From positions 1-64,000 of the forward strand of contig JAIXMG010000015.1 in the NCBI GenBank assembly GCA_025201345.1: a stretch of 64,000 bases of DNA, written 5' to 3'. The translations under genes and the position numbers were made by a program. Below are positions 8,164-34,441 of this stretch, piece by piece. Under the pieces are notes generated by a model. It did no database searches, was not told the origin of the DNA, and saw only the letters and a program-made list of their open reading frames with translations. The first letter of the stretch is position 1. Every line of letters begins with the position of its first letter. Source of the stretch: Thamnidium elegans (Eukaryota > Mucoromycota > Mucoromycetes > Mucorales > Mucoraceae).

Positions 8164-8195
8164 GGGTCATTATGTATAAAGGTCTCATATATTTT

Positions 8196-9011
8196 TTAAA
8201 CCAATTTTTCTATCAAAGTTATAAAGTTATCAATCGATGTTTTCTTTATGCTATTAAATGTGTATAAAGGAAAAACAAAATTACTATTAGATACTTTTTT
8301 ATTATTATATATTTTAGAACTAATTTCTAAATTTTTCATGAACCTTGATTTATTTTTATCATAAATTTCATAAATATCATTAATATAATTGTCATCAATT
8401 TGGCTATTACTGTATTTTATATATATATCATTAAATAATTTTAATGTATTTCTATTATTTAGTTTTATTTTGTCAAATACACTATCTTGTTTATTCTTAT
8501 GTATATTTAAATTTAGTTTACTTAGTTTATTTATAACTTTTAAATTTTCGTCGTCTTCATTTAATTTATTATACTTTTTTCTTTTTTTATTTGTATAAGC
8601 TTTGGGATAATTTTCATTACATAATTCTTCTCCCATTTCAACATCACTTAATGTATTTGACTCCTCATATAATTCATCTAATTCATCATCCAAAGTGTTG
8701 CTATTATCTAATTTATTTTTACATATATTACATATGTTATTATACTCATCTTCGTCATAATTTTCACAATCTTTATTTTTACATATATCAGGACAAATAC
8801 ATCCATTTTCATTAATTTCAAATCCACAATCTTCGCATATATTATTATTATTATTATCGTCAATATTAAAATCTAATGTATTTTCTATATTTGTGTTCTT
8901 GCTAATATGATTATATTCTTCATCTTTGTTTTCTTTTGTTTCATAATATATTTCTCGGGAGCACTTATTCTCTATGGTTTCATTATTTTTATTTAAATTT
9001 TTATAGAATAC
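8196..9011 (-). pseudogene. Merlin-2 companion protein, 3' part (split by Merlin-3)
   Basis: This is the C-terminal ~270 codons of the Merlin-2 companion gene. The first ~36 codons lie at 16265-16372 and the duplicated target AAGAAAAT joins the two in frame. It is a diverged homologue of the 299-aa protein of Merlin-3 and Merlin-4. The cysteine cluster ICEDCGFEINENGCICPDIC..DC..NICNIC is almost unchanged, as is the C-terminal block NRNTLKLFNDIYIK..FVFPLYTFNSIKK. The Asn/Asp-rich linkers vary. Very AT-rich codons. No known family recognised. Eight cysteines suggest metal binding. The ATG at 9026 lies inside Merlin-3's terminus and is not the true start. Confidence 0.75.
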
Positions 9012-9040
9012 ATTTTCTTGGGTCATTATGTATTAAGGTC

Positions 9041-9940
9041 TCACATATTTTCTATAACGTGTTTTTCTAATAAATTTATAAAATTGTCAATAGATGATTT
9101 TTTTATGCTATTAAATGTGTATAGTGGAAATACATAATTACTATTATATATTCTATCATTGGAACATATTTTAAAACTAATTTCTAAGTTTTTCATAAAC
9201 CTTGATTTATTTTTATCATAAATTTCATAAATATTATTAATATAGTCTTCCTTAATTTCTTTTTTCATGTGTTTTATATATATATCATTAAATAATTTTA
9301 ATGTATTTCTATTATTTAATTTTATATCTTCAATTAAATGATCTTTTTCATTCTTAGTTATATTAATATAGTTCTTATTTAGTTTATTTATTACTTTTAT
9401 ATTTTCTTCATTCTCATTTAATTTATTATAATTTTTTCTATTTTTACTTGTTTTAGATGAGTTTTCATTATAGAATTCTTCTTCCATTTCAATATCACTT
9501 AAAGTATGTGACTCTTCGCACAGTTCATCTACCTCTTCATCTAATTTATTTTTACATATATTACATATTTCATTATACTCATCTTCGTCATAATTTTCAC
9601 AATCTTCATTTTTACATATATCAGGACAAATACATCCATTTTCATTAATTTCAAATCCACAATCTTCGCATATATCAATTTCTTTACCATCATCTATATC
9701 AATTTCTTTAATATCATCTATATCTAATTCTAATGTATTTATATTATTTAGTCTCTCTTCTAAATGTTTGTTTATTTTATCGTCAATATTATTATTTATT
9801 TTTTCTTTATTTAATGATTTGTAATAAGTATTTTCTTCTTTTAATTTATTAATTCTTTTTTCTAATTTCATAACTTTAGTTACTAAATAAATATACTTTT
9901 GTTTTTTAATTTTAATGTACAAAGAGTTATAAGAAGGCAT
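9041..9940 (-). CDS. Merlin-3 companion protein (coiled coil plus Cys cluster), intact
   Basis: 299 aa, identical on reading to the protein of Merlin-4 (27107-28006). Residues ~10-65 are Lys/Glu-rich with heptad-like spacing (VMKLEKRINKLKEENTYYKS), a likely coiled coil. Residues 91-129 hold eight cysteines (CEDC, CIC, C109, C114, CNIC) in a zinc-ribbon-like layout. Residues ~190-299 are the most conserved part apart from the Cys cluster when compared with Merlin-2. It starts at MPSYNSLY. The TGA stop falls inside the terminal inverted repeat. Function unknown. Because the ORF stays open in an element that lost its transposase, I infer a role in mobilisation or end binding. It could also be a self-interested passenger. 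Confidence 0.8.
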   Translation of the reverse strand: MPSYNSLYIKIKKQKYIYLVTKVMKLEKRINKLKEENTYYKSLNKEKINNNIDDKINKHLEERLNNINTLELDIDDIKEIDIDDGKEIDICEDCGFEINENGCICPDICKNEDCENYDEDEYNEICNICKNKLDEEVDELCEESHTLSDIEMEEEFYNENSSKTSKNRKNYNKLNENEENIKVINKLNKNYINITKNEKDHLIEDIKLNNRNTLKLFNDIYIKHMKKEIKEDYINNIYEIYDKNKSRFMKNLEISFKICSNDRIYNSNYVFPLYTFNSIKKSSIDNFINLLEKHVIENM

Positions 9941-10120
9941 TGTTTAATTTTTATTTATATCTAAATTCAATTTTTGATCTTTTAAAAAGATTTTCCAAAT
10001 ATTATATTTATTCTTTTTTCTCTATTGATGTAATTTAATATATATATTTTATTTATAATATGTTTTTCAATTTTACAAGAAATTAAATTAGTCGGAGCTT
10101 AAATATAATCTGAGACTTAT

Positions 10121-10386
10121 GTGGTATTTAACCATAAAAACTAACGCAAGTTATCACTCCAAATATATCTGAGGTGGTTACACAACAACCTCAGTTAGGT
10201 ATCGCTTACTACCCTGGTTCTTAAACCTAAATTATTCTTACTATAAAAAGGATATTTTACGAGGCAACCTTTTGTTCCCTCTCTTGTTTTTTAGAAGTCA
10301 TTTTTTAATTAATAAAGATCCAAAAGAAGTTTCATCTTATTTTCTGCTGTCTCTTTTTATTTCATAATTCGATACTAAATATCTCA
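10121..10386 (+). repeat. Gypsy-A 5' LTR
   Basis: 266 bp, TGTGGTATTTAAC...AATATCTCA. A CTATAAAAAGG box about 120 bp into it is a likely promoter element. Confidence 0.95.
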
Positions 10387-10395
10387 TTTTTTAAG

Positions 10396-13300
10396 ATGAA
10401 TCCTTCTTCGGCTACTATTTCTAACAGTCCTCATGATAGTAATTCTGTCACGAAAGTGCTTGATGGTTTAACCAACATGGGATTGGATAATAACAATTCT
10501 ATTGCTAAAAATTCTGCCACGGATGAATCCTCTGTTACTACAGAAGATTCGGAAATGGAAGAATCATTTGTTGCTTACGAAAGTGTTAACAACAATGCCA
10601 ATAAAATTTCTAATAAGAAATCTATTGAGAATAAAACTGCTTTAGAACAGCTTAATAATCAATATGAAAGTATAATGATAATTATTGCTAATCTCAATGA
10701 GCAAAAAATTAAATTGTTTTCTGAGGGTATTTTTGATACTAATAATGAGAGATTTATTACTATTGAGAATAACACCAAGTTGGTCAATGAGCACGCTAAA
10801 TTGATCAAAAGTCAAATTACTGCCTTGGTAAAACCTATTGATAGTATGCTACCTAGCAACGATTTGACTTTGGTGGGTTCTAGCAATCGTGGAATTCCCA
10901 TTAAAGACGTACCTGCCTTTAATGTGAACCCTTTACTCGATTGTTGGAATATCGAAGAAAAAGATAAAAATGATAAGGAAATAACCTTAACAACTTTCTT
11001 TTTGAAATTTGAAAGATTGTTTGTTACATATAACCTTAATATTAGTAAATCTTGGTTTTATTACCTTGAGATTGCTTTCGAAGGCTCTACTAATCACCAT
11101 GGTTGGTTTAGTGTAAATTTAAAAAATTCGTCTGCAATTTCTTGGTCTGATGCTAAGACTATTTTACAACAACGTTTTGACATGGCCTCTCAAGCCAGCG
11201 TTAATTCGTTAGCTATTAGTTTGATCAATTTTTCTCTTGAGGAAAAGGAATCTTTTATTTTATGTTTGGAGAGATACCGAATGTTAATTCTCAGAGCTAA
11301 AATAAATATTGAAAATAATGTAATGTTATTTTATTTGTTTGTTAATTGTTTTCCTTCAAAAGTGCAAGGAAAAATCAACCAAATAATTTCAAGTAACTTT
11401 CGCAAAACCAACCCGTCTGATTTTGATAATGTAAAGATGCACCATGCTCCTGCTAGTTGGGCTATGTTCGAAAAAATAATTATTGGACATATTGCTGTTA
11501 TTGAAGAAACTTTAGGATCCTCTAGGATCCATAAAGTTAACAACAAAAAAAGAAGAATGATTGAAAAGGTTGAAGAAGTTCCTTTCGACACTTTAAAAAA
11601 CGATGCCCCTTTTGTTGCCTCTGGACCTACGTCTTCCGCTGCATCGAAACACGTCAATTTCGCCACGTTGAGAGCACAAGGCATTTGTACCTATTGCAGA
11701 ACTGCAAATTACCGCGATGATCCAAGTCATTCGTATAACTGTGAGGTTAAAATTGCAGTCTTTAAAAGAAAGGGTTACAAATTGCCTTCCCCTCCTGTAA
11801 GTAATTACATTGATAATAAAAATAATAAAAATAATAGTCATAACTACAATAATGCAAATATTAACAAGATTGATCATTCTGTTAACCTTAGTAACTTCAC
11901 CAAGGGAACTGATGTATCAAATCTTTCGGTTGCTCCTGCCACCTACGATAAAAAACTTTGTGCTATCTCTGACTCTGATACTGATACATCAGACAACGAT
12001 TATGATGATTTTTTTAATAAATATATTCAACCATACTATAAGAGCTCCAATGATGATAATTCCTTAAACAACAATAAGAATCATCTTCTAGAGAAGAACA
12101 TTTTTGCTGTAAGAAATAACAATGTTGGTGATAATGATAATCCATGTAATATAGAAGGAACCTCGTTATCCCCTGCAACACCTATCATTATTAATAGTAT
12201 TCTTAGCTATGGTATTATTGATACTGGTGCTAGTGTTAGTTTGATAAGTAAAAAATATGCCCAGAAAAATAATATATCATTCCATTCTATTCCTGGTAGT
12301 CTAATCATGGCTAATGGTAGTAAAGTTCCTCGTCTACAAACAATTGATCCTTTACTCGTCGAATATGATAATGTAAACAAAATAATTGAACATAAATTCG
12401 ATATTATTGATGACAATATTATTGATTCCGATAATGAAAAAATTTTAATTGGTGTAGATTTATTACCCAAACTAAAAATTTATTTGTCTAACGTTGCTGT
12501 TAAACATAAAAACCTTCAAAAAGAAGTTGTCGATAATTCGAAAAACGATGATGCCTATATTCCAAATGTCACTAATTTCGGTACTGAACAAGAACAATAT
12601 GCCTTTGAAAATGCTATTAAAGTGTATATTGACAAAAATAAAAAATTAGACAAGACATCTTTATGCACTATAAAGGATGCTGTATTACATTTACCAACCC
12701 CTCCTGGTTTTATTGCTAATATCCGACAATACCCAATCCCTTATGCATTAAAGGATCAAGTAATGGAAATAATTGAAAGTTGGGAAAAAGATAAAATAAT
12801 TGTTCCTGCTAAGCCTTCCGGTTGGAATTTACCTATGACTGTAACATTCAAAAAAGATCACGTGAATGGTGCTATCTGCAAAGATAAAAAGAATATTCGC
12901 CTTCTTCTCGATCCAAGGAAACTTAATGAAGCACTTGATGAATCATCAAAGAATTCTCACAGCTTACCATTAATTAGCGATATATTTAATTCTATGACTG
13001 GTTGTGTCGTATTTTCTACAATTGATTTGAAATCGGCATTTAATCAATTCCCTGTCAATGAAGCGGATCAGATAAAAACAACATTTACTGCTCCTAATAA
13101 TTTGCAATATATGTATCGAGGCTCGCCATTTGGCATTTCTGTGATCAGTCAATTGTTTAGCAGAGTGATGTTAACATTGTTTAAAGATTTACCTTATGTT
13201 ACTTGCTTCGTGGATGATATTTGTATAGCCAGTAGATCAATGCATGCCCATTATTACCACGTAAAAAACGTGCTCGAAATACTTACAAAAAATAATCTAA

Positions 13301-15870
13301 GAATTAATTTCGAGAAATCACATTTTGCAAAGTCGGCTGTATATCTTTTAGGGTATTCTATATCTGCTGCAGGAAAAAGAATAGATAAGCGTAAACTTAC
13401 CAATTTTAATGAAATGCCTCCTCCTAAAACACAAAAACAAGCACAATCTATATTGGGCTTTGTCAATTTCTTCCGTATGCACTTGCCAAACGCAGCTGCT
13501 TTAATGGCTCCTCTAGATGCCTTACGTTCACATGATATTAAAATAAATGGCCCCTTCATTTGGACCAAAAAACATCAATTACATTTTGACGCCATAAAAA
13601 AGGTTATGCTGTCAGATGTAGTATTATCACAACCAGAACACTCGCACCCATATTGCATCGCAACTGATTCTAGCGATTTTGCTACTGGTTGTGTACTTTA
13701 TCAAGTGTTTGATTCTATTGATCATAATAATGAAAAAACATCTGTAGTCAAATATATTGGTTTCATGTCTAGATCGTTTAATAAGCATGAGCGTTTATAT
13801 TCTACTTCGATGAGAGAATTAAACGGAGTAATCTATGCTTTAAAACAATTTCATAAATTTGTTTGGGGTACTCAATTTACTCTATACACAGATCATAAAG
13901 CCCTTTGTTATGTATTTAGTCAAAAATCAGCTAATCGTATGATCATTAAATGGTTAGACATTTTACTTGATTATACTTTTACTGTAGTACACATTAAAGG
14001 TATGGATAACATTCTTCCTGATGCATTATCAAGATTGTATCCTCCAACTGATTCGGAAACCATTAAATATGATAAATTCAAACAAAAACAGCACATTTCT
14101 TCCCCTAGAAAGAATCATGCTACTTCAAATTATATAAACATTAAAAAAAAGATTAATTCTAACCTTATTGCTGTTGACGGTACTTTGTTTACTAATGAAC
14201 AACAGGACCAAACAAAACATATCAACTTGATTCATGCTATGCCTGTTAATTCAAGTGAAAATAACAATTGCTATACCACTTCCTTATCAAGGAATATTTT
14301 TTATATACAAAGTGCGCAAACTATATGTCCTGACTATGTCATTCCTCCTGACAACGATAAAGATCAATTATTGAAGGATGCTCATACTAATATTGGCCAT
14401 TATGGTGCGGAACAAATGGTAAAAAGACTCCACAAGGAAGGTATTCATTGGGTTAATCTCATTGGTGATTGCATTAAGTTTGTTCGTACATGCGATTCTT
14501 GTATGCGCTATAACGTAAAAAAACGGGGGTTCCATCCCTCAAGACATATATATAGTTATACTCCTGGTCAACATTTAGCCATAGATTTGGCTGGACCTAT
14601 GGGTACAACCACAGAATTAAATAATAATTACGTTATGGTTATTGTTGATGTATGCACTCGTTTTTGTATACTTCGTCCCTTAGCGGATAAAAAGACTGCT
14701 ACTATTGTTAAAGTATTATCTGACGTCTTCGCATTAATTGGCGTTCCTTCTATTCTCCAATCCGATAATGGTTCAGAGTTTAAAAGTTATTTATCGAAGG
14801 AATTAGCTGATGCTTTAGGTTATGACCATAGATTTATTTCTCCACTGCATGCCTCGGCAAATGGTTTAGCCGAACGTACGGTTCAATCAGTAAAAATATT
14901 ATTAGCAAAAGCTACCAAAGGTGTTGGTTCCCATTGGGATCTTTACCTTAATGCGGTACAATTATCACTTAATAATCGCATATCCAAAAAATTAAATACA
15001 ACCCCTTTTTCCTTATTCTTCGCACGTCGTATGCCTGAAACATATGGTTTTACAGCAGATGAGGATAAAGATAAACAAGGAGAACATAAAAGACCTATGT
15101 CTCATGAAGAGCTCATGAAAAGAATTGATTATATGAATGATATTGTCTTTCCAGCCATAGCTGAAAAAACCAAAACACAAATTGAATTGGATAATGCTAA
15201 ATTTGATAATAAGCACGTTCTAGTCGAATATAAACCTAATGATCATGTTATGGTTCGTATAGAAAAAAATGGTCAATTATCTCCTTCTTACTCTGGTCCA
15301 TACACCGTTGTTCGTAAAACCCAAGGAAACTCATATGTCCTTAGAGACACTGTTGGGATGATTATGCCTAGGAATTATACGTCAATTGAATTAAAACTTA
15401 TCTCTCATGACGAAGTAATTGCTCTTGACGATGAAGGCAATGAAATTAAAAATTATGAAATCGAAGCCGTTATTAACCATCGAGGTGAACCAAGGAATAT
15501 TGAATATTTAGTTCGATGGAAGAATTATAGTAGTGACTGGGATGAATGGATACCCACAGATCATTTTAATGATATCGATTGTCTTCGTAAATATTGGAAG
15601 AACCTTGGCACTGTGTATAAACCAAAAAAGTCCAATGTCATTACTAATGCTCCTTCTAGCTCTAAAGCATTACAAAAGAATAAACCCAGTACAATTAGTA
15701 AGCTAATTAGGTCATTACCATTAGACGAAGATGTTGATTCTAAAACTACATCTTCTCATTCTAAACGTAAACGTCCTGCTATACTCTTATCTCAAGAAGA
15801 TGCCTTCAAGCAATCTAAAAATGCGACCAAGCGTTCTCCTACTCGTCAAAGTCCTCGCTTCAAAAAAAGT

Positions 15871-15876
<6 letters not shown>
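10396..15876 (+). CDS. Gypsy-A Gag-Pol polyprotein
   Basis: 1826 aa in one frame. Order: Gag (~1-430); one zinc knuckle-like motif CTYC...HSYNC (~430-455); Asn/Asp-rich linker; retropepsin with IIDTGASVSLI (~605); reverse transcriptase with FSTIDLKSAFNQF (~876) and the catalytic FVDD (~937); RNase H with ATDSSDFA (~1089), TDHKALCYV and DALSRL; integrase HHCC (HTNIGH..CDSC, ~1328-1375); integrase core AIDLAGP (~1396), QSDNGSEF (~1455), GLAERTV (~1492); chromodomain with NHRGEPRNIEYLVRWKNY (~1690-1735); basic tail. All catalytic residues are present, so it may be active. The start is the first ATG after the LTR. The FVDD box has F where YVDD is commoner, which is normal for some Ty3 elements. 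A run of about 37 A follows the stop. Confidence 0.95.

Positions 15877-15914
<38 letters not shown>
15877..15914 (+). repeat. A-tract after Gypsy-A gag-pol
   Basis: A run of about 37 A starting at the stop codon of the polyprotein. Comparable A or T homopolymers lie in the 3' UTRs of the other gypsy elements here. Confidence 0.7.
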
Positions 15915-15918
<4 letters not shown>

Positions 15919-15977
15919 CTTTCTCCATTATCATTGCAAATCTGTCTTGGGAGTAATCTCTTGCTGATGGGGGGCTA

Positions 15978-16244
15978 TGTGGTATTTAACCATAAAAACT
16001 AACGCAAGTTATCACTCCAAATATATCTGAGGTGGTTACACAACAACCTCAGTTAGGTATCGCTTACTACCCTGGTTCTTAAACCTAAATTATTCTTACT
16101 ATAAAAAGGATATTTTACGAGGCAACCTTTTGTTCCCTCTCTTGTTTTTTAGAAGTCATTTTTTAATTAATAAAGATCCAAAAGAAGTTTCATCTTATTT
16201 TCTGCTGTCTCTTTTTATTTCATAATTCGATACTAAATATCTCA
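15978..16244 (+). repeat. Gypsy-A 3' LTR
   Basis: 267 bp, same as the 5' LTR apart from one A. Followed by the duplicated target ACTTA. Confidence 0.95.
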
Positions 16245-16264
16245 ACTTATATGCAGATACATCC

Positions 16265-16372
16265 ATTTTCTTTTTTTAATGTATTAACTCTTAATTCTAA
16301 TTTTTTTATTTTTAGTATCAAATATAAATATTTTGATTTTTTAATATTAAAATATAAATTATCTTTATTCAT
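16265..16372 (-). pseudogene. Merlin-2 companion protein, first ~36 codons
   Basis: The ATG at 16372 starts MNKDNLYFNIKKSKYLYLIL, which aligns with MPSYNSLYIKIKKQKYIYLV of Merlin-3 and Merlin-4. It runs in frame into ..LKKEN, where Merlin-3 begins. The ATG lies only 30 bp after the transposase stop codon on the same strand. The rest of the gene is at 8196-9011. Confidence 0.75.
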
Positions 16373-16402
16373 TTATTTTTTTATTATACGTAAATTCAAT
16401 TT

Positions 16403-17281
16403 TTAATCTTTTAAAAAGTTTTTCCAAATATTATATTCTCTATTCTTTTTTCTCCATTGATATTCCCTTAAATATAAGACTATGTCCTTTTTATTTCTAT
16501 TTCTTGGTATAATACTTTGCTTTAGTCCATTCCATGTTCCTTCTATTGTATTTGTATGGACTCCTGTAACCGGATCTTTAAAATGTTTTTTATGATTAAC
16601 TGTTTTATGTTTATATCCTATTTTACTTAAATTATTATACCCTTTCCAACAATCTGTATATATTGTAGTACCTTTCTTAATGTATTTTTCTATTATTTCA
16701 TTAATATTTTCTATATTTCTTTCTTCAATAGGTTCTAAAAATATTTTTTTATTTTCATTTTTAACTTTATTCTTTAATCTACTTCTTTGTATACCTCCAA
16801 TAACCCATGCACCTTCTACACTATGTCCTTTATTATATTTTCTCTTCGCTATTTTAGTTTCATCGATTTCAACAATTTCATTTCTTCCTCCTATTTTATT
16901 TCTTGGCTTAATAAGTTGCTTATCTTTTATGTACTTTCTAAATAATTTACTATATCTACTTACTGTATTTTTATCAATTTGTAAACTTGAACTTATAAAA
17001 GACGAAGGAGCTTTACCTAAAAATAAATATAGTATATGTAATTGAATATTTAATGGTAATCTTAACTTATTAAATATTGTTCCTTTTAATGGTGATAATG
17101 CTTTTCTGCATTTATAATATTTACATACGTATAACTTTTTCTTAAAATTTAATTTCATATCATAGTTACATATGCTGCACTTATCAAACTTATTCACATA
17201 CTTATTTTCTATTAAGTAATTTAATGCGTTATCTTCATTGTCAAATATATGCTTCAAATTTTGATATGACTCTATAAACAT
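16403..17281 (-). CDS. Merlin (IS1595/ISXO2-like) DDE transposase, intact ORF
   Basis: 292 aa. N-terminal zinc ribbon with C35, C38, C53 and C58 (CSIC...CKYYKC); helix-turn-helix-like region ~85-110; ISXO2-type catalytic domain with D140 (EIVEIDETK), D210 (IYTDCWKGY) and E247 (TNTIEGTWNGLK), as expected for D-D-E enzymes of the IS1595/Merlin class. Normal length for the family. It should cut the GG-starting ends and give 8-bp target duplications, which is what the four Merlin elements here show. It is the only full Merlin transposase in the window, so it is the obvious candidate to have mobilised the transposase-less copies. The frame is intact although its host element is broken downstream. 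Confidence 0.9.
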   Translation of the reverse strand: MFIESYQNLKHIFDNEDNALNYLIENKYVNKFDKCSICNYDMKLNFKKKLYVCKYYKCRKALSPLKGTIFNKLRLPLNIQLHILYLFLGKAPSSFISSSLQIDKNTVSRYSKLFRKYIKDKQLIKPRNKIGGRNEIVEIDETKIAKRKYNKGHSVEGAWVIGGIQRSRLKNKVKNENKKIFLEPIEERNIENINEIIEKYIKKGTTIYTDCWKGYNNLSKIGYKHKTVNHKKHFKDPVTGVHTNTIEGTWNGLKQSIIPRNRNKKDIVLYLREYQWRKKNREYNIWKNFLKD

Positions 17282-17398
17282 ATTATATAATGTATTATTC
17301 TAAACTATATTTTATATTTAAAAGGAAAATCAATTTTATACAAAAAGTAAAATATTCGGTGTTTAAAATTGACCTGAGACTTATATGCATATACATCC

Positions 17399-19370: not shown

Positions 19371-20555
19371 GGGTCATTATCATTTTAGGTCTCAGGTTTT
19401 TATATTATCCGTCTCATGCAATTGTTTTGATTATATTTTATTTTCTTAATATAATTATTGTTTATTCTCTTATGTTAATATCAAAAAACTATCTTCCTTG
19501 ATTATATTTTTGAATCTACAATATTATCCATCTCAAACGCATATATTTTTTGGTTATATAACATTATAATTGACAGAAAATCTTAAAATCATAAAACATT
19601 ATTCATAGAAATACATTATAATACCATACACTTATTATAATATTTTAATCATTTTAATACAAAGTTTTATATATTAAAATTATCTATAAGTTCTATAAGT
19701 TCATCATTAATTTTGGTTGCTTTTGAAGGTATTTCCAGAACATGTTTATAGTTATTGTTATATTTATTTAACTTTTTAATAGCCATTTTAGGATTATTAT
19801 TGTTTACTATACTAAAAACTTCAATTATTAAATCGTTACTGTATTTCATCAATTCTAGTAATTCTTGTATTTTATTAATTATATTTCTTTTTATGTTAAT
19901 TTTATTATTACTTTTTGTCATGATTTTAGAAGTGTTAGTATTTGAGTTTGATAAATCATTGAAACTGACATCCTCACTATTATTATTTAAATTAGTAGCA
20001 ACAGAACCTGTAATTTTAGAATAATCTATAGGTATATCGGATATAGTGTTAATAGGTTCATTGCCTATACCATCACAATTATTAATATCATTAATTAAAT
20101 TGTTTTCTAAAGTTTCATTATTTATATTTTTAGTATTTTCATTAATTTCACTAATTTCTTGAATATTTTTTTTATTATTTTGTAATGTTTTTGATTTCTT
20201 ATTTTGTTTTGTTAACGATTTATTTCTTCTTCTTTTAACTTTATACTTAAAAAAATACGGATTATTGTCTTTCTCAAATTTTATCTCGAAAGATTTAATA
20301 TCATTATTATATATTATATTTAACTTTTCTATATTATAATTCTCAATTATTTTAATGATATAACATCTCTTTATATTTTTTAAAAAGTATTCTTGTTCTA
20401 TTAAATCCCCAAAGTTTTCCATTATGCTAATATTTTAAAATTATGTTTTTATTTGTTTACAAATTAATCCACCTAATATTTATTTTAATAATAAAATTCA
20501 ATTTTATCCATCTCATACATTTTTATAAATCTGAGAGTTATATTGGGATACATCC
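19371..20555 (-). mobile_element. Merlin-1: Merlin element with an unrelated ORF and no transposase
   Basis: Inserted in the protease region of Gypsy-C with 8-bp duplication GAAAACTG (minus strand; 19363-19370 and 20556-20563). Ends are GGATGTATCCCAATATAAC.. and GGGTCATTATCATTTTAGG.., again reaching TCTCA at positions 20-24 as in Merlin-2, -3 and -4. Length 1185 bp. The only ORF is 19667-20422. About 295 bp between that ORF and the 19371 end hold no gene. Confidence 0.9.
19667..20422 (-). CDS. Merlin-1 passenger protein, unknown
   Basis: 251 aa, intact ATG-to-stop frame filling most of Merlin-1. I recognise no family. The N-terminal ~75 residues mix hydrophobic and charged residues (EYFLKNIKRCYIIKIIENYN). 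A basic stretch KVKRRRNKSLTKQNKKSK at ~78-96 could be a nuclear signal or nucleic-acid contact. An Asn/Ser-rich linker follows to ~170, then a C-terminal helical part (IINKIQELLELMK..KMAIKKLNKYNNNY). It lacks the cysteine cluster of the other companion proteins and does not align with them by eye. It is not a transposase I can identify. Its preservation in a transposon without transposase suggests a function tied to the element. This is inference. Confidence 0.6.
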   Translation of the reverse strand: MENFGDLIEQEYFLKNIKRCYIIKIIENYNIEKLNIIYNNDIKSFEIKFEKDNNPYFFKYKVKRRRNKSLTKQNKKSKTLQNNKKNIQEISEINENTKNINNETLENNLINDINNCDGIGNEPINTISDIPIDYSKITGSVATNLNNNSEDVSFNDLSNSNTNTSKIMTKSNNKINIKRNIINKIQELLELMKYSNDLIIEVFSIVNNNNPKMAIKKLNKYNNNYKHVLEIPSKATKINDELIELIDNFNI

Positions 20556-21041
20556 CAGTTTTCTATCGTTGATAATAATAGGAGTAATTAGTCTCTTGAA
20601 AGGATTGAATACATCTTTATTTGGATTAGACTTACATTCGTATGTTTCGTTTTCGAAACTTTCTTTTCGAACTGCTTGCTTTCCCTTGACGTTAGCTGAT
20701 ACAGCTAACACAGTCTGGTTTCCAGGTCTTTTTTCAGGAAACTTCTGATAAAAAGCTTCACATACGTGACCAGCTCTCCATCTACTTCCACATCCATGTG
20801 AACAGAAAGGAGGAGGTCTAGATCGGTTCGATCTGTACACCTTGTTTCTTGACACCGGAGTACTTGATTCAGCACGGTCTTCGGTAATTTCCGTACATTC
20901 CGCACTGGTGTGAGAGTTGTTATCACCATGATACGAGCAGTAGTGCAAGGCGGTTGAACTCACCCTTTTTTTATAAGGTCTTGGTCCTTCAACGTGGTTG
21001 ACAAGATGTGAGAGACGATTCCATTTCAATACAAAAAACAA
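20556..21041 (-). pseudogene. Gypsy-C Gag C-terminus and zinc knuckles
   Basis: Two cysteine motifs, CSYHGDNNSHTSAEC and CSHGCGSRWRAGHVC, match the double knuckle of Gypsy-D and Gypsy-F Gags. It ends with PIIINDRKL at the Merlin-1 border and continues at 19370 with KLKGKLDTGSN (the protease). Upstream the frame runs into AT-rich DNA at about 21045. Confidence 0.8.
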
Positions 21042-21044
21042 AAG

Positions 21045-21345
21045 ACATATAATTTAAATTTTTTTTAATTGTTCAAGAATAAAATAAGAATTTTATTTAA
21101 AAGATTAGCTTAAGTTTCGCAATTGACAATTAAAAAAAATGTTTTATAAAAAGAAAATTAACGAGTAAACTATTATTATGTCCTGTGATTAATTTTTGCT
21201 TGATTATTTAATTTGTTAGTGATCTAAGGATTTCTTTATATTTTATTCTTTTTCTTGATTTAAAAAATTGTACTAAATTTAAATTTTTGTTTTCTTTTAA
21301 TAAAATACTTTAACTTTTCTTTAATAACAATATAATAATTTTTTT
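21045..21345. other. AT-rich segment splitting Gypsy-C gag, probable small insertion
   Basis: About 0.3 kb of very AT-rich, non-coding DNA lies between the two halves of gag. ATATAAT occurs on both sides (near 21050 and 21332) and could be a target duplication. No clear inverted repeats. It could equally be decay by substitution. Confidence 0.4.
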
Positions 21346-22302
21346 GTCGTTCCTCTGTCGTTTCGACTTACTTGCTTCAAGTTGTTCAGATGGGTTTCCC
21401 ATCTCAGGCAGTTTATCCGTAAAGATATTGAACGTGATCTGAAAGATTTCAGAGGCTGTCCAGACCTCATCATCCTTCTTCTGAGCGCCTATAACAGTCA
21501 TGACATGAGTTTGCCAGTGAGCTGGTAAAGCAATGAAATACAAATCTGCAATCATTTTGTCCTCAATGGAATAATCAGTGTTCTCAAGAGCTTGAACAAA
21601 GCGATTATCAAAATCAGAAATGGTCTCATTTGATAACATTTTCATGGCAATCAATTCCTTGGTAGCCAGAATACGTAATTGAGCATTACCAAATTTTTTT
21701 TCCAAAACCTTTTTAGCTTCGGCCCAAGATTGACAAACGAAGAGTTCCTTGCGCATCCAAGCCTTTAACTCATCAGGGAAAGTAATAGGGATATATTTAA
21801 CCCATACCTCATCTAACTCATGGTTGGCAGAGACAACAATTTCCTCAAATGTAGAAATAAATTCTTCCACACCTTTGTAACTTTTCTTCCCTTTAAATTG
21901 AGGGTAATTTTTACCAACAAGTTGAAAAGAAGGTAAATCGTTTCGACTCAAAGTTAAACCCTTATTTCCAGTAGATGTGGTTGCCCACTTCGAAGCAGCA
22001 GTTCCTTTTCCTGTTACAGGAGAACTGAGATTCTCTACCGAGGTTAATGTTTCAATAACCTTTTGCTTGTTAGCAATTTTACTTGCCAACTCGACACAAA
22101 GCTTTTCATCCGTTTCGGAATCAGCATCGCGAGAATAAATCTCAAGGATTTTATCATCTAAAGCTTCCACTTCAGCACGCAATTTCACCAAAACTTCCTT
22201 TCGAGAAAGCTTGGGAGCAACCTTGTGGTTCGTAACTACTGGTCCAGCAGCTTCGGCCATCTCAATATCCTCCTGAGGAACGTCGGGAAGGTTCTTCTCC
22301 AT
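21310..22302 (-). pseudogene. Gypsy-C Gag, N-terminal part
   Basis: About 330 codons from MEKNLPDVPQED. The capsid-like region includes PSFQLVGKNYPQFKG, WVKYIPITFPDELKAW and SNETISDFDNRFVQALE, which resemble other Ty3 Gags in position and pattern. The frame is open upstream of the ATG (..AGNWTEMEK) to a TAA near the LTR with no earlier in-frame ATG, so the original start may be lost. The last ~12 codons run into the AT-rich segment. Confidence 0.8.
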
Positions 22303-22449
22303 TTCAGTCCAGTTACCGGCAGGTCCATCGTTGTCTGTGACAGAGTTAGGAGCGGTAGCCTTAGCAGCAGGGGTGGTTTTTCCAGAGGTAGAAGCCCTTT
22401 TGTTTGTTTATTTGTTTGTTGAATAAGGTTATTATATAATCTTAAAAAA

Positions 22450-22799
22450 TGTGGAGAAATACTTTGATTTAACACAGAAAAATTAATAAAAACAGGTGAA
22501 TAAGATTAAATGTCTAATAACGTTTATTTCTTATTTTAATTGCAAAAATCAATCCCGGTAAAAGGGATTGCTAACTATGATTTCTTATTTATAGTCTTTT
22601 GCAATAGTGGTCACACTATTGTGATTGATCGTTACACGTAGATTTGATCTAGTGATTTTTATAGCCTGAGGATCTTGATTTCTAGATCCTGCGCTTTTTT
22701 TATATATAAGGTTCATTTTGATACCTAAGGTTTGTTATGCTTTATAATCGATGGTTCATCGATTATTATATATTTTATTTTATGTGTGATTTTACCACA
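22450..22799 (-). repeat. Gypsy-C 5' LTR
   Basis: 350 bp, the partner of 6148-6497. On the minus strand it is followed by TTTTTTAAG, without a recognisable tRNA-complementary primer site. Confidence 0.93.
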
Positions 22800-23237
22800 C
22801 AAAAGACTCCATTTAATATTACATGTGACCAGAAAATGATGTTTACTACTTTTTGACCCTCTATTAGTTTGATCAGTCAATTCATCTAAATCTAAGTCAA
22901 GCTCAAGGGATTCGGCGTCAGTTTTATCAAGTGTGCGATCAAATGTGGTACGATCTAAGTAATTAATGATAACAGTAGGTTCAACCAGGTCAATAGAATA
23001 TAACATCTGATAATATTCTTGAATGTATTGATTCATTTGAGCGGGGTCACTAGTGGTAGTGGTATTACCATCATAATCTGGTAAGGGAGATTGAAGAGAT
23101 GTCATATACTGTTGAGAGGTCCTTTGTTGATGCACATTTTTGAGGTATCGAGCTAATCGCTCTCCCTTTTCACGCCAAATAGTACCTGATTTTAAAGCAG
23201 CTACGTCGACCAGCTCTTGTTGTAATATGTGTATCAT
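22800..23237 (-). pseudogene. LINE remnant, region before the reverse transcriptase
   Basis: The frame reads SGTIWREKGERLARYLKN, then NQYIQEYYQMLYSIDLVEPT and LELDLDLDELTDQ. This is the pattern found between the endonuclease and RT of fungal LINEs (W.E.GER..RY, F/Y..LY, then the first RT helix). Gypsy-C inserted at 22800, so the last residues translated from 22725-22799 are LTR. The downstream part of the same LINE is at 5882-6147. The RT catalytic core is absent. Confidence 0.6.
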
Positions 23238-23430
23238 GTTACCAATTTTAGACAGTAATTGTCGAAGAGTTGTGATTGGATGTGTTCAGTAGATTATCAA
23301 ATAACTCTAATCTATTAGGCTTTGTTATTGTTCCATCAGACAGTAACGAGTAGATTCTATATTGGAACATAAAAAATCATAATTTGCTTGCAGTAAACGT
23401 TTTTTAAAAAAAAACTTTATTATTGTTAAA

Positions 23431-25261
23431 CTAATAATTAATACTTTGATTTTTTATCATTTGTTCTAAAGGAACACTCTTCCAACCGCTGCTTTCCTCA
23501 ACCAACTCACTGATAACCTTGTTTTGGTTCTCTAAGGATACCTGAATTCAAACGGATAAAAAAAAAAAGTCAAATTTCATTTAATATATAAACAATGTTT
23601 TTCATTAATATATCTTCAACTTCATGATCAATTCCATGACTGGCAGCCAATATTTTCGGTCCTCCCACTTCCTGGGTACAGCAGCCGAACGCTCAGTTAC
23701 ACAGGCCCATTTTCCATTTCTTAAAACTTTCATTGATAACAGGGTAATTTTGTTTTCAATGAATTGGAGACAAAATATTTTACGCTTTAGCATTGTTTCA
23801 AATGATCCCTTTTCATACTTATTCATATCTTGTTTTAAGCAAATGGCAGCACATTCCATCAATTTTATAGAATCTTCAATGGTATGACCATTATCCGACT
23901 CACTACATTATATTATATTAATAGAAGATATTAGAATAAATCGTGAAATAGGTTGTTAATGACTTCTATATACCTAGATGATTCAAACAATACTTCTTCC
24001 ACTCCATCTGTGGGTGCAATTCCAATTCCATCCATTAATTTTTTTGTTGCATTATGAGGCATACAAATAGCAATTATTTTAGACGATTCAAGACCCTTTT
24101 CGCACCTATAATATAAACGTATATGAGTTATTTTAGACATTTTTATTTTCGGATAAAAACGATAGTAACCATAAAAAAGACAAAAGTTTTGTCGTAGAGG
24201 CAAAGTACTTGAATATTGGGACTACATGCTCAACAAATGGTGTTCGTTCATTGTTTGGTATTAGCAATGGTATTTTTTCGCAATTGGAGACGTAATCTGT
24301 CAAAATAAATCTTAGTAGCTTAATCATTGTTTTTTCTTCATCATTGAATTTGGGGTCATATCCATTGCTCCACACAAATATTGGTAAATTATCTAAATCT
24401 TGATCTAGTGATTTTTTCAAGAAAGCTACAACATTAGGGAGTGTCATAATACAATGATTCGATTCCTGTTCTTTCATATTTAAGTTGTATTCATCTACTA
24501 TCTCTTGTGGAACATTGTTATATGTTTCATCATTTATTTTAACGACATATAATTCTTTTAGAAGTTCGATGTCTGAGGGTAATACTCGAGGTTGATGTCT
24601 TGGTTTGGAAGGAGCTAATGCAGGGAAAAAATGATATTTCTTCTTGCCTTTTTCAATCAATACATTATCCTAGAAATAAGAGAAAATTAAATATAATATT
24701 CACATTTATATGGCATGAGCTCCTATTCTTTTACTGCATATGCAAAAAGAAAAAAAAAGTTAGTTGTCAAAAAGTTTTTCAAACACTTAGTAATAGATTT
24801 TACCCTCTTCGGCTTTTCGTTTATTACCCTATTCACAAGGTTATTCAATTGTGATTTATAAAAGTAATAGTTTGTATACTTACAGTTTCTTGATTAATAA
24901 TGTTGGTAACAGATGCGATTTTTCCAAAATTATTTAGCACATTTGATGATTCTCCATTATTGCTTTGTTGTTGTGGTTGATTTTGTTGCTGTGGTTGATT
25001 TTGTTGCTGTGGTGAGAAGTTTTCTTTATCTGACATAACTTTTTGCATAACTTCTACCTCATCGATAATACGTGCAGCTGCATTTTTATACGCTTTTTTA
25101 ATAGAACCCACTTCATTTACATCATTCTTTAATCGATTAATTTTTTCAGTAAATGATTCAGGTACATTATAATATAATTGAAATAAATCAATTGCTTTCC
25201 ATTTGCTTGGAATAGTCTGAAATAAATAATCTTTTGGGTTTCTTATACGTTCGAAGGACAT
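23431..25261 (-). CDS. Multi-exon gene of a mucoralean-specific family
   Basis: Minus-strand exons, with splice sites read by eye: 25261-24884 (MSFERIRNPKDY.. to ..INQET; donor GTAAGT), 24669-24170 (DNVLIEKGKKKYHFFP..; donor GTTACT), 24105-23973 (joins as LWCEKGLESSK; donor GTATAT), 23902-23605 (SESDNGHTIEDSIKLMEC.. ending KLKIY). A last exon 23541-23431 (NQNKVISELVEESSGWKSVP) is likely, but I cannot find a clean donor for it. Introns are 214, 64 and 70 bp. The protein has a Gln-rich repeat (PQQQNQ) in exon 1. The second half (ATKKLMDGIG, ..FESSS, KIFCLQFIENKITLL) matches a pattern I recall from many copies in mucoralean genomes. Function unknown. A 5' fragment is duplicated at 5019-5475. Confidence 0.6.
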
Positions 25262-25616
25262 TTGTTTATATGTATAAAAAAAAGACGCGCTCCCACGCAC
25301 TCCCACTAGACTTTTAAATAAAAATAGTTTTTTTATGACGTTTTTTTTTTTTTTAATTACGTATTAGTGAGAAAGTAAATATATTATGATAATTAAATAA
25401 GGCTAATTCCTGGTACACCACCAACAAATAACAAGTTTTTTTTTTTAATTACGTATGAGTACGTGAGAAAGTAAATATAGTATGATAGTTTATATAATTA
25501 AATGTCTAAATATTTCAAAAGGGGCTTCTCTAAATTGGTACTTGTGGTATAAATGGTGATGTACCAAGAATTAACCTTTTTTTTTCAGGCGACTTTTTAT
25601 ACGGGCACTTTTTTTT

Positions 25617-26726
25617 CGGCTTTCTTAGGGACCACGGCGTACTTTCTTAGGGATCATGATGGGCGCCCATAGGGATAGTAAGGCTCGGGTCACACCACAG
25701 TGGTCCCTAATGTCAGATCCGGCACACTACCGCTGTCTATAAGAGAAAGTATCAAAATAAAATAAACCTTTCTTTTTCTTAACAATTTAATAAAATGAGC
25801 ACTAAAACTAAATTTTTGAATGTATCTGTACCTTTACCACCTATTCCAGAGAATTCTACAAAAGACATCGTAGTAAATCTTCTTAAAGATTACGCAATGA
25901 AAAACTTTTTTGAATAAATAATTGCTCGTTCCAGCAAGAGCTTAGTTTATCTCAAATTTCGAAGAGGTGGCGAGTACCGAAACACTCGTAGCTTAACATA
26001 AGAAGAGCGCAAACGTTGGAAAAATAGCTGTAGATCAGACTGCCCCTTTTACGTAAGAGTGGGAACAAAAAACCAAAAGGATTTTTCCTATTTGCCTCCT
26101 GTTACCGATGATGAGCAGTATCACAATCATGAGCTTAATGACGAAAATATTCTAGTCGTATTGGGAGAATTCATTTATTAAAAAATGACGATTTAGATAA
26201 GCTTAGGTACGGTGTCGAGCAGAAACTTCCGGCAAAACTCGTTCAAAAAACCTTGAGTGCTGAAAGTAATTTTAATAAGTTAACCAGCAAAACTTAAAGT
26301 GAAAGTACAACCTTTTATTCTTCAGAATTCATTGAATGTACATTGGCTCGCTGTTAAATTAGGCCATTTACAGTTTAAGTATCCTCCCATCCAAAGACTG
26401 TATTTTAGTGTTAACAAAGCCTATTCTTCTCTTTTTGAAGTAACTTGGAATTATTTTGGCCCGTTTCCAAAACATAACGAAAACACACCCATTGATCCAA
26501 AAAGTATAGATTATGTTAACATTCTTTCTTCAGATGAAGAATAACTTACTATCTATATATAAAACAAACTTTTTATTAAAATCATTCATAAACTTTGATC
26601 AATTACTGTTTGATCTGACCGTGGTGTGACAAACTCTTACGGACCACGGGGTACCCGATCCTTACTATCCCTATGGGCGCCCATCATGGTCCCTAAAAAA
26701 GTACGCCGTGGTCCCTAAGAAAAACG
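25617..26726 (+). mobile_element. Mutator-like element (MULE) derivative with long TIRs
   Basis: The ends CGGCTTTCTTAGGGACCACG and CGTTTTTCTTAGGGACCACG face each other, and the inverted repeat continues for about 75 bp with few mismatches and more loosely to ~110 bp. The 9-bp direct repeat CTTTTTTTT flanks it (25608-25616 and 26727-26735), though this lies in T runs. Long TIRs, a ~9-bp duplication and an internal FAR1-type domain fit the Mutator superfamily. At 1110 bp it is non-autonomous and has no transposase catalytic domain. Confidence 0.8.
25795..26544 (+). pseudogene. FAR1-type DNA-binding protein remnant inside the MULE
   Basis: The frame starts MSTKTKFLNVSVPLPPIP at 25795. With in-frame stops (at codon 41 and after ..NTRSLT) it continues RSSKSLVYLKFRRGGEYR, CRSDCPFYVRV and DDEQYHNHEL. 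The CPF..V and HNHEL pair is the FAR1/WRKY-GCM1-like zinc-binding pattern of MULE transposases. After a stop at 26181 another open piece (26299-26544, WNYFGPFPKHNENTPIDP) ends with SSDEE. The stops make it a pseudogene unless spliced. Confidence 0.6.
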
Positions 26727-26912
26727 CTTTTTTTTTTTTGTTTTAGTCTTGCCCCAGCTATTGAATTTGAGAAAGGCATACAAAACTGCCAAGTTAAAGT
26801 TAAAGTTGAAACTAAATTATTAAGGTCCTTGTACTTCCAACGATATATCCTTATACGGGGATTTAATTCAGTACAGTAAAATTAATATTACAATACATAA
26901 ATAAGTAAAATT

Positions 26913-28027
26913 GGATGTATCTGCATATAAGTCTCAGATTATATTTAAGCTCCGACTAATTTAATTTCTTGTAAAATTGAAAAACATATTATAAATAAAA
27001 TATATATATTAAATTACATCAATAGAGAAAAAAGAATAAATATAATATTTGGAAAATCTTTTTAAAAGATCAAAAATTGAATTTAGATATAAATAAAAAT
27101 TAAACAATGCCTTCTTATAACTCTTTGTACATTAAAATTAAAAAACAAAAGTATATTTATTTAGTAACTAAAGTTATGAAATTAGAAAAAAGAATTAATA
27201 AATTAAAAGAAGAAAATACTTATTACAAATCATTAAATAAAGAAAAAATAAATAATAATATTGACGATAAAATAAACAAACATTTAGAAGAGAGACTAAA
27301 TAATATAAATACATTAGAATTAGATATAGATGATATTAAAGAAATTGATATAGATGATGGTAAAGAAATTGATATATGCGAAGATTGTGGATTTGAAATT
27401 AATGAAAATGGATGTATTTGTCCTGATATATGTAAAAATGAAGATTGTGAAAATTATGACGAAGATGAGTATAATGAAATATGTAATATATGTAAAAATA
27501 AATTAGATGAAGAGGTAGATGAACTGTGCGAAGAGTCACATACTTTAAGTGATATTGAAATGGAAGAAGAATTCTATAATGAAAACTCATCTAAAACAAG
27601 TAAAAATAGAAAAAATTATAATAAATTAAATGAGAATGAAGAAAATATAAAAGTAATAAATAAACTAAATAAGAACTATATTAATATAACTAAGAATGAA
27701 AAAGATCATTTAATTGAAGATATAAAATTAAATAATAGAAATACATTAAAATTATTTAATGATATATATATAAAACACATGAAAAAAGAAATTAAGGAAG
27801 ACTATATTAATAATATTTATGAAATTTATGATAAAAATAAATCAAGGTTTATGAAAAACTTAGAAATTAGTTTTAAAATATGTTCCAATGATAGAATATA
27901 TAATAGTAATTATGTATTTCCACTATACACATTTAATAGCATAAAAAAATCATCTATTGACAATTTTATAAATTTATTAGAAAAACACGTTATAGAAAAT
28001 ATGTGAGACCTTAATACATAATGACCC
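26913..28027 (+). mobile_element. Merlin-4: intact transposase-less Merlin element
   Basis: 1115 bp, flanked by the 8-bp duplication GTAAAATT (26905-26912 and 28028-28035). Ends GGATGTATCTGCATATAAG.. and ..TTAATACATAATGACCC match Merlin-3. It contains only the companion gene and a frameshifted scrap of the transposase C-terminus (about 27020-27068). It is nearly identical to Merlin-3 in the opposite orientation, so both moved recently. Confidence 0.95.
27107..28006 (+). CDS. Merlin-4 companion protein, intact
   Basis: 299 aa, identical on reading to the Merlin-3 protein at 9041-9940: coiled-coil N-terminus, eight-cysteine cluster at residues 91-129, acidic middle, conserved C-terminal helical block ending ..NFINLLEKHVIENM. 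The TGA stop is the TGA of the terminal TGAGACC, so coding sequence reaches into the transposon end. No known function. The cysteine cluster suggests a structural zinc domain. Confidence 0.8.
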   Translation: MPSYNSLYIKIKKQKYIYLVTKVMKLEKRINKLKEENTYYKSLNKEKINNNIDDKINKHLEERLNNINTLELDIDDIKEIDIDDGKEIDICEDCGFEINENGCICPDICKNEDCENYDEDEYNEICNICKNKLDEEVDELCEESHTLSDIEMEEEFYNENSSKTSKNRKNYNKLNENEENIKVINKLNKNYINITKNEKDHLIEDIKLNNRNTLKLFNDIYIKHMKKEIKEDYINNIYEIYDKNKSRFMKNLEISFKICSNDRIYNSNYVFPLYTFNSIKKSSIDNFINLLEKHVIENM

Positions 28028-33500: not shown

Positions 33501-34441
33501 AGTTTAAATTCAGAGTTAGGTATAGTGCAAACAGATGTAGGATCAATGTTAGCGTTGTCATCTAATTCTCTTTTAATAGAATTCATGAATTGGTTACGAA
33601 TATTTTCTGTTCCGAAGTATTCAAAAGAAGGAGTGTTAGGAGAAGGATCGATTGGATCTTCAATCGTAGGTAATGTGGAGTCGTTCCAAGTTGTAATTAG
33701 ACCAGTGACAGCTATATTGAGACGAGGCATTAAGTCAAGTCCTATGCATATATCAGCTTCACTATGAAGGTCAAATACTTCAAATTTATGATGGACAGTA
33801 ATATTGTTATAGAATACTTTTATTTTTTCAATAAAGCCTATTCGTGGAACAGTGTTATTTTTATGACCCAAAGAAATGATATTATTTTTATTATTTATGG
33901 GGGAAGAAGGAGAAGAAGAAGAAATACTACTAGTACTATTATTATTGGGACAAACAGGTGTGAGACCGAGTGTTTTGACCAGTGATGGTTTAATTGCAGA
34001 GAAGTTAGAACCAGTGTCAAGATATGCCCATGTTTGGTAGTTCTGTATTGTAATAGGTACAAGAATAGAATGTGAATTTTTAATTAGAGTAGGTTCTGGA
34101 TTAATAGTTTGGTTTTTAGTAGTAGACTTACATTGTTGGGATATGTCTTCCAACATATCAGTATCCTCGTCGTCGTCAACAAAGGTTAATGCTTGTAAGG
34201 AAGCAGAAGAAGAAGAGCGCTGGGCTTGGTTGTTGTTATTTACAGGTTGTAAATTCATTGCTCGTTGTGTGAGCTCGTCTACAGCAGGTGCAGGATCAGC
34301 GGGTTTACCATAGAACCGGACAGAAGAGGAGGAGGACTGACCTTTACCCTTTGGACAAATATGGCTAGGTGACCAATTTTCAACACCGCATCTGAAACAA
34401 GGATTTTTCCTTTTAGAAAAAGAAGAATTGTTGGTACCAGT
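30587..34441 (-). pseudogene. Gypsy-D Gag end plus Pol (open frame, cut off from Gag by Gypsy-E)
   Basis: Open on the minus strand from the Gypsy-E border at 34441. First a second zinc knuckle CFRCGVENWSPSHIC, then (counting from the ATG at 34258) retropepsin AYLDTGSNFSAI, RT with VLDLKSCFTRF and the catalytic YIDD, RNase H with STDASGYAIGG and YTDHYSLIFL, integrase HHCC (HHLLGHGG..CIICHSF), core VCDLGTL, QTDRGLEF, NGTNEAY, and chromodomain with SHKGSNPTNYLYRVRWKGY. Ends SRRLDSTSPA. The catalytic residues are there. The ATG at 34258 is internal to the original polyprotein. Confidence 0.9.

What the first reader, a model, noticed from the sequence alone, without database searches (positions are those of the whole stretch)
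8164..28027. A Merlin transposon family that carries companion genes and keeps them after losing its transposase
Four Merlin-type elements with matching ends and 8-bp target duplications lie in this window. Only one (Merlin-2) encodes a transposase. Two (Merlin-3, Merlin-4) keep an intact, identical 299-aa coiled-coil/eight-cysteine protein and only a scrap of transposase. The Merlin-2 version of the same protein has diverged in its linkers but keeps all eight cysteines and the C-terminal block. Known eukaryotic Merlin elements are usually described with a transposase only. Non-autonomous copies normally keep ends but no genes, so an ORF that stays open suggests it helps the element move (end binding, target choice, protecting or recruiting transposase).
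Basis: partly seen in the sequence, partly recalled or inferred. Interest (0 to 1): 0.9.

Follow-up and report, generated by a model that had tools for sequence, protein, structure and literature searches.

The report
Two-gene Merlin transposons and companion-only relatives
In a Mucorales fungus (Thamnidium elegans), a family of jumping genes carries a second protein beside its mobility enzyme, and shorter relatives that lost the enzyme keep that second protein in working order, which suggests it helps the element persist or move.

Summary
The observation largely holds. The window lies in Thamnidium elegans (Mucorales) and holds four Merlin-type elements with 8-bp target duplications. A genome census shows four families. 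B: a 292-aa DDE_Tnp_IS1595 transposase plus a companion. A: a B-like element with the transposase deleted, companion only. C: transposase plus a companion without the cysteine module. D: C-type ends around an unrelated 251-aa ORF. Of 20 A loci, 15 keep an intact companion ORF; the 19 whose 5' part is present share one deletion, so their divergence came after transposase loss. It shows purifying selection (tree-based omega 0.29, 2dlnL 14.6; permutation P 0.004). No ORF-breaking lesion was shared among aligned copies, and none of 45 end-paired elements is shorter than 743 bp. Relatives occur in other Mucorales.

Corrections: the two window A ORFs are nucleotide-identical, so the window alone shows no selection; the Merlin-2 ORF is a fragment split by a nested A element; the eight-cysteine module is optional; the fourth element carries a different protein.

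Best reading: an accessory transposition factor that non-autonomous elements supply themselves while borrowing transposase. Its biochemical role is not shown. Precedents: TnpB/Fanzor-only and HAL1 elements. New variant of a known kind.

The parts
8164..17398 (-). B-family Merlin element (autonomous type), inserted in a Ty3-type polyprotein gene; carries a nested A element
   Evidence: ends and TSD TTTTTATC on both sides; 1982-bp uninterrupted copies elsewhere
16403..17281 (-). 292-aa Merlin/IS1595 transposase of the B element
   Evidence: PF12762 E 4e-19; identical protein at four other loci
8196..9019 (-). 3' part of the B companion ORF (interrupted by the nested A element)
   Evidence: tblastn 64% to the A companion, query 21-295; complete B companions elsewhere
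16265..16372 (-). 5' part of the same interrupted B companion ORF (36 codons)
   Evidence: tblastn piece at 16262-16363 and position of the companion start in complete B elements
9020..16264 (-). A-family Merlin element (no transposase), nested in the B companion ORF; itself split by an LTR retrotransposon
   Evidence: TSD ATTTTCTT at 9012-9019 and 16265-16272; BLASTN to an A copy 99.7% over positions 12-1115
9041..9940 (-). A companion ORF, 299 aa, intact
10120..16244 (+). Ty3-type LTR retrotransposon inside the A element's terminal repeat (LTRs 10120-10386 and 15978-16244, identical; TSD ACTTA)
   Evidence: RVT_1, RNase H, rve, Chromo
19371..20555 (-). D-family element with Merlin ends, TSD CAGTTTTC, no transposase
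19667..20422 (-). D ORF, 251 aa, unrelated to the companion
20501..20515 (-). D-specific 15-bp site (TGAGATGGATAAAAT), near the E1 end
19521..19535 (-). D-specific 15-bp site (TGAGATGGATAATAT), toward the E2 end
19402..19416 (-). D-specific 15-bp site (TGAGACGGATAATAT), near the E2 end
26913..28027 (+). A-family Merlin element, complete, 1115 bp, TSD GTAAAATT
27107..28006 (+). A companion ORF, 299 aa, nucleotide-identical to 9041-9940; its stop codon overlaps the E2 terminal repeat
27018..27075 (+). relic of the transposase 3' end (about the last 19 codons, stop lost)
   Evidence: A 106-1115 aligns to B 938-1982 at 78%; reading of the frame is mine

Best explanation
These are two-gene Merlin transposons of Mucorales. 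The second gene encodes a fast-evolving accessory protein: an N-terminal helix (coiled coil by eye), a disordered acidic linker with an optional cysteine (probably zinc) module, and a conserved C-terminal helical domain. I infer that it works with the transposase on the element's own DNA, most likely as an end-binding or complex-assembling factor. The A family arose when the transposase gene was deleted from a B-like element, leaving the companion behind the former transposase 5' end. A elements then spread with transposase borrowed through near-identical outer ends, while still supplying their own companion. SHOWN: anatomy, one shared deletion, TSDs, intact ORFs, purifying selection after transposase loss, no shared companion-breaking lesion among aligned copies, no short ORF-less copies found. 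INFERRED: that B supplies the transposase; that the companion promotes transposition rather than regulating it; that it binds the ends.
For: Companion starts 30 bp after the transposase stop in the five 1982-bp B elements and 54 bp after it in two C elements. A 1-92 and A 106-1115 align to B 1-93 and B 938-1982 (77-78%), an internal deletion, seen in the 19 of 20 A loci whose 5' part is present (C22 lacks it). No B- or C-type transposase hit lies inside an A element except the B nested in the C18 copy; a 42%-identical fragment at C23:461 kb lies in the large insertion of the C23 copy. Selection in A: omega 0.29, lnL -1214.98 against -1222.27 for omega=1; permutation with the observed mutation spectrum and stops excluded N=23, S=17, expected N=30.4, P=0.004; 47 of 49 A pairs with at least 10 differing codons reject omega=1 one at a time, median 0.23, pairs not independent. 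15 of 20 A loci intact. Disabling indels private among aligned copies. 45 end-paired elements, shortest 743 bp. D elements keep a second, unrelated ORF with three copies of a 15-bp site near both ends (39 of 41 genome matches lie in D elements or fragments; 0 of 100 shuffles reach it), a hint of end binding for D. Homologues beyond this genome.
Against: No biochemical or expression evidence. No Pfam match over its cut-off, no PDB-sequence or significant fold match. The single A, B and C copies tested have no repeated site comparable to D's (24, 68 and 6 of 100 shuffles reach their best). Within-D selection is not significant (P 0.08; 2dlnL 1.3). Shared A mutations alone are not significant (P 0.10). 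The A 5' non-coding region is itself conserved (6 distinct substitutions in 219 columns), so it is no neutral yardstick. Most in-frame ORF indels are 12/24-bp repeat units, so frame-keeping is partly mechanical. Within B, damage is not one-sided: 5 of 10 copies with a complete companion have a damaged transposase, but 4 of 9 loci with a full transposase ORF have a broken or cut companion (C7, C45, C9, C12). For a protein acting in trans, element-level selection is hard to explain without cis preference or few active copies.
Confidence: 0.55

Rival explanations
1. The companion counters host silencing of its own family (like VANC of Arabidopsis VANDAL elements): it binds family-specific DNA and keeps the element expressed or accessible, not part of the transposition complex.
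For: Fast protein divergence (B vs C companion 42% identity, dN 0.58, against 83% and dN 0.098 for the transposases) fits a specificity factor; VANC proteins diverge with family-specific short motifs (PMC5735166, passages seen); D has family-specific repeated sites.
Against: In A, the retained gene has no transposase to derepress; no motif array in the A, B or C copy tested. Methylation or small RNA state was not testable.
Confidence: 0.17
2. The companion is a repressor or copy-number regulator of Merlin transposition, kept because it limits damage to the host or to the element family.
For: A transposase-less element that keeps a regulatory ORF would be selected at host level; recalled precedent: P-element repressor derivatives. 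No call here tests it.
Against: A itself is at 20 loci, some copies identical, so its presence has not stopped movement; several B copies are near identical and so recent.
Confidence: 0.12
3. No function after transposase loss: the A and D ORFs are open only because the copies are young, made from a few sources.
For: Many copies are near identical; expected number of stop mutations under neutrality is only 1.6 in A and 0.9 in D; 12/24-bp repeat units make in-frame indels likely; D alone does not reject omega=1.
Against: A rejects omega=1 on the tree and in the permutation, and A divergence postdates the shared deletion. D-type proteins of five other database entries align over 98-100% of the D protein at 40-49% identity.
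Confidence: 0.12
4. The A and D lineages descend from autonomous elements still present elsewhere (other strains or species) with their own A-type or D-type transposase genes; the conservation reflects those, and the transposase-less copies are repeated dead ends.
For: A companions differ from B by 35% in protein, and no A-type transposase was found in this genome. Only one genome could be searched.
Against: The A copies share one deletion junction and vary among themselves after it; a 290-aa A-type homologue at 90% identity lies on a 1071-bp contig, about the A element's length (length only).
Confidence: 0.04

Closest known systems
Merlin superfamily / IS1595-IS1016 (DDE_Tnp_IS1595)
   Same: 8-bp TSD, short imperfect TIRs, PF12762 transposase; Merlin transposases already reported from Mucoromycota (PMC8101967, passages seen)
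   Different: A second gene beside the transposase, and companion-only and D-only derivatives. [quoted passage not shown] the whole paper was not read
TnpB-only IS elements and Fanzor-only eukaryotic elements
   Same: An accessory protein stays intact in elements without transposase; the authors made the same argument from long-lasting coding capacity (PMC3627910, passages seen)
   Different: No Pfam match of the companion to TnpB/Fanzor-type domains; Merlin ends and 8-bp TSDs
HAL1 (L1-derived elements coding only ORF1p)
   Same: A non-autonomous family keeps the accessory ORF and drops the enzyme (as cited in PMC3627910); ORF1p also has a coiled coil (recalled)
   Different: RNA-based retrotransposon with cis preference through its RNA (listing, and recalled); here a DNA transposon
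VANDAL/VANC anti-silencing factors (Mutator-like)
   Same: Accessory gene diverging with family-specific DNA motifs (PMC5735166, passages)
   Different: No sequence relation tested; Merlin, not Mutator-like; silencing not testable here
PIF/Harbinger two-gene elements (Myb-like plus transposase), En/Spm TNPA (both recalled)
   Same: Works-like analogy: accessory DNA-binding subunit needed with the transposase
   Different: No Myb or other DNA-binding domain of Pfam matched in the companion over its cut-off

Membership tests
Merlin superfamily | 8-bp target site duplication | tested here: met
   perfect 8-bp TSD at the four window elements and at 28 of 31 elements compared; of the other three, A_C20 and A_C23_502 show 9-bp repeats and A_C1 none
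Merlin superfamily | DDE_Tnp_IS1595 transposase | tested here: met
   B and C transposases, PF12762 E 4e-19 and 3.6e-17; not encoded by A or D, which join the family only by their ends
Merlin superfamily | terminal inverted repeats | tested here: met
   imperfect ends GGATGTAT.../GGGTCATTAT... in the four families
Internal-deletion non-autonomous derivative (A of a B-like element) | both ends plus flanking internal sequence of the autonomous element with a contiguous deletion | tested here: met
   A 1-92 and 106-1115 vs B 1-93 and 938-1982
Internal-deletion non-autonomous derivative (D of a C-like element) | internal sequence shared with the autonomous element | tested here: not met
   D shares about 80 bp at one end and 29 bp at the other with C; weak short matches elsewhere only; ORF unrelated
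MITE | short (under about 600 bp, recalled) and without coding capacity | tested here: not met
   45 paired elements, shortest 743 bp; A and D carry ORFs
TnpB/Fanzor accessory nuclease | TnpB/Fanzor (RuvC-type) domain | tested here: not met
   no such Pfam match for the A, B and D ORFs or the homologues scanned
PIF/Harbinger accessory protein | Myb/SANT-like domain | tested here: not met
   no such Pfam match
VANC anti-silencing factor | family-specific loss of methylation or silencing | not testable with these tools
   no methylation or expression data
Known protein fold for the companion | fold match to a solved structure | tested here: inconclusive

The most novel reading that the evidence does not exclude
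Merlin transposons of Mucorales are modular. The outer ends recruit a shared transposase, while each non-autonomous family carries its own accessory protein and its own internal binding sites, and only elements that encode a working accessory protein are propagated (a cis-like requirement). This arose at least twice with unrelated proteins (A companion, D protein), and it explains why no short ORF-less copies were found.
Probability: 0.25. Interest if true: 0.8.

Novelty: new variant of a known kind. Interest (0 to 1): 0.62.

Why it matters
Non-autonomous DNA transposons are usually thought to need only their ends. Here two families without transposase keep different, intact protein genes, and one (A) shows codon-level selection after transposase loss. 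That makes the old question of why transposase-less elements keep accessory genes (posed for HAL1 and Fanzor-only elements) testable in a fungus with a small genome, with a two-protein system of about 2 kb.

Tried and rejected

Limits of counts. A statistics use the 15 intact ORFs of 20 loci and 270 gap-free codons; D statistics 8 of 12 near-complete elements (3 further fragments); B companion 10 of 17 loci; B transposase 10 copies of at least 286 aa. The shared-lesion check covers the copies aligned: 14 A, 11 B, 4 C, 9 D (D copies C18_50 and C55 dropped, C31_57 not included). The other interrupted A copies are broken at different positions; the stop-bearing C22 copy was not compared for shared lesions. 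MITE-like copies with ends more diverged than the patterns allow (one mismatch; two for E2) would be missed. That fixing the parameter sets omega alone to 1 was verified for A only.
Full report
WHERE. The window is the start of contig C7 of a 34.1-Mb, 64-contig genome.

WHAT IS IN THE WINDOW. A Ty3-type polyprotein gene carries a B-family Merlin element (8164-17398). In that element's companion ORF sits an A-family element (9020-16264), and in that element's terminal repeat a second, chromodomain-bearing Ty3-type retrotransposon (10120-16244; identical LTRs, TSD ACTTA). A D-family element lies at 19371-20555 and a complete A element at 26913-28027. The four Merlin elements have perfect 8-bp TSDs. 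The two A ORFs are identical at 900 of 900 bases, so the window alone cannot show selection.

CENSUS. End-pattern searches with up to one mismatch gave 53 hits for each end and none for the reversed pattern; two mismatches, tried for E2 only, added two hits against one for the control. They pair into 45 elements, with eight unpaired ends of each kind. Four families follow from ends and content: B, 1982 bp, 292-aa transposase plus 304-307-aa companion; A, 1091-1161 bp when uninterrupted, companion only; C, about 1.9-2.1 kb, transposase 83% identical to B plus a 268-288-aa companion with no cysteine module; D, 1175-1222 bp, C-type ends and an unrelated 251-259-aa ORF. The shortest pair is 743 bp (an A copy with deletions), so ORF-less MITE-like copies with these ends were not found. 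B is found inside A (C18) and A inside B (C7), so their activity overlapped.

ORIGIN OF A. A 1-92 matches B 1-93 and A 106-1115 matches B 938-1982 (77-78%). The transposase gene is gone except for about its last 19 codons, whose stop is lost. The companion now follows the former transposase 5' end. The 19 of 20 A loci with their 5' part show this junction, so differences among A copies arose after the loss. No A-type transposase gene was found in the genome. The outer 24-25 bp of A and B differ at one or two positions, so B transposase is the likely helper (inferred).

SELECTION. 15 of 20 A loci have an intact ORF; five are broken by insertions (C18, C8, C23), deletion (C42) or stops (C22). 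On the tree of the 15 ORFs (270 gap-free codons) omega is 0.29 and omega=1 is rejected (lnL -1214.98 vs -1222.27, 2dlnL 14.6). A permutation that keeps the observed mutation spectrum and forbids stops gives N=23, S=17, expected N=30.4, P=0.004; shared changes alone P=0.10, single ones P=0.01. Pairwise GY94 omegas have median 0.23 (range 0.13-0.51) in 49 non-independent pairs. A versus B gives 0.06 for the whole ORF and 0.12-0.19 in the three regions tested, with saturated dS for the whole ORF. For B companion and B transposase 2dlnL is 4.2 each, for D 1.3 (permutation P 0.06, 0.12 and 0.08). So selection is shown for A, weak for B, not shown within D. No stop was seen among the 40 distinct A changes, but only 1.6 were expected under neutrality, so that alone proves nothing.

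ASYMMETRY. Lineages without transposase have multiplied twice (A, 20 loci; D, 12 near-complete elements plus 3 fragments). Among the copies aligned (14 A; 11 B, 4 C, 9 D) no lesion that breaks the companion or D ORF is shared by two copies. Against a simple asymmetry, inside B the damage runs both ways. Of the 10 B copies with a complete companion ORF, five have a broken or damaged transposase (C3_912, C64, C8, C31, C1_878); of the nine loci with a full 292-aa transposase ORF, four have a broken or cut companion (C7, C45, C9, C12). The C31 damage is an 18-bp deletion around what I take, from recall, to be the first catalytic aspartate.

THE PROTEINS. The companion has no Pfam match over its cut-off, no PDB-sequence match and no significant fold match. 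The model (mean pLDDT 63) has an N-terminal helix 13-51, a disordered middle, and a C-terminal helical part from about residue 171 with 10-residue means of 71-91. Across 21 sequences 20 of the 23 invariant columns lie at 171-273 (for example YD-NKSRF-KN at 241-251). The eight-cysteine module of A and B is replaced by a C-x4-C...C-x2-H motif in four aligned homologues (P0006, P0008, P0016, P0018; one ligand is lost in P0014) and is absent in C and others (motif reading mine). The D protein model (mean pLDDT 58) has an N-terminal alpha-beta part of low confidence, a disordered middle and a confident C-terminal pair of long helices; its homologue P0031 has a cysteine-rich middle, so optional cysteine modules occur in both unrelated protein types.

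D SITES. TGAGAYGGATAAWAT occurs 41 times in the genome, 39 of them in D elements or fragments; each of the 12 near-complete D elements has three, one near E1 and two toward E2, and no C element has it. None of 100 shuffles of one D element reaches such a triple; the best triples of one A, B and C copy are reached by 24, 68 and 6 of 100. This makes D the better candidate for an end-binding test.

HOMOLOGUES. The companion search found 21 proteins, the profile search 19; sources that gave a name are T. elegans and Gilbertella persicaria. D found 12, named sources T. elegans and Mucor flavus. Their DNA could not be fetched; contig lengths (1071 bp for an A-like one, 1138 bp for a D-like one) only hint at companion-only elements elsewhere.

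LITERATURE. PMC8101967 reports Merlin transposases in Mucoromycota; the passages seen describe no second ORF. PMC3627910 (passages) argues, for Fanzor-only and HAL1 families, that lasting coding capacity of a non-autonomous element implies function; this case is the same argument with codon-level selection in a Merlin. PMC5735166 (passages) gives the anti-silencing alternative. PMC12730594 (one passage) concerns other fungal accessory genes.

CONCLUSION. The anatomy and the selection on A are well supported. The role as a transposition accessory factor is an inference (0.55), with anti-silencing and repression as the main rivals.

Noticed in passing
G000, about 50 further PF12762 matches; loci L078-L083: Other Merlin-type transposases with longer reading frames (about 280-520 aa); those read have acidic and partly R/G/P-rich C-terminal tails (AT-hook-like by eye) and no companion ORF in the five loci listed.
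   Followed up: partly
window 19402-19416, 19521-19535, 20501-20515: A 15-bp site repeated three times near the ends of each near-complete D element and almost nowhere else in the genome.
   Followed up: yes
companion linker, A copies and C copies: The acidic linker expands and contracts between copies in steps that keep the frame, mostly 12- and 24-bp units in A.
   Followed up: partly
P0028 (Mucor flavus): One predicted protein joins a piece of a P0009-like companion to a piece of a D-type protein, which suggests the two kinds of element lie next to or inside each other in Mucor flavus.
   Followed up: no
G000 contigs C3, C7, C8, C12, C17, C18, C22, C31 and others: Many Merlin copies lie within about 50 kb of contig ends (by eye), perhaps subtelomeric repeat islands.
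   Followed up: no
window 10120-16244 and 30587-34258: Two long Ty3-type polyprotein ORFs with chromodomains, one with identical LTRs, so recently inserted.
   Followed up: partly
G000:C11:142578-142592 and G000:C41:55705-55719: Two copies of the D-specific site outside any detected D element; not examined.
   Followed up: no
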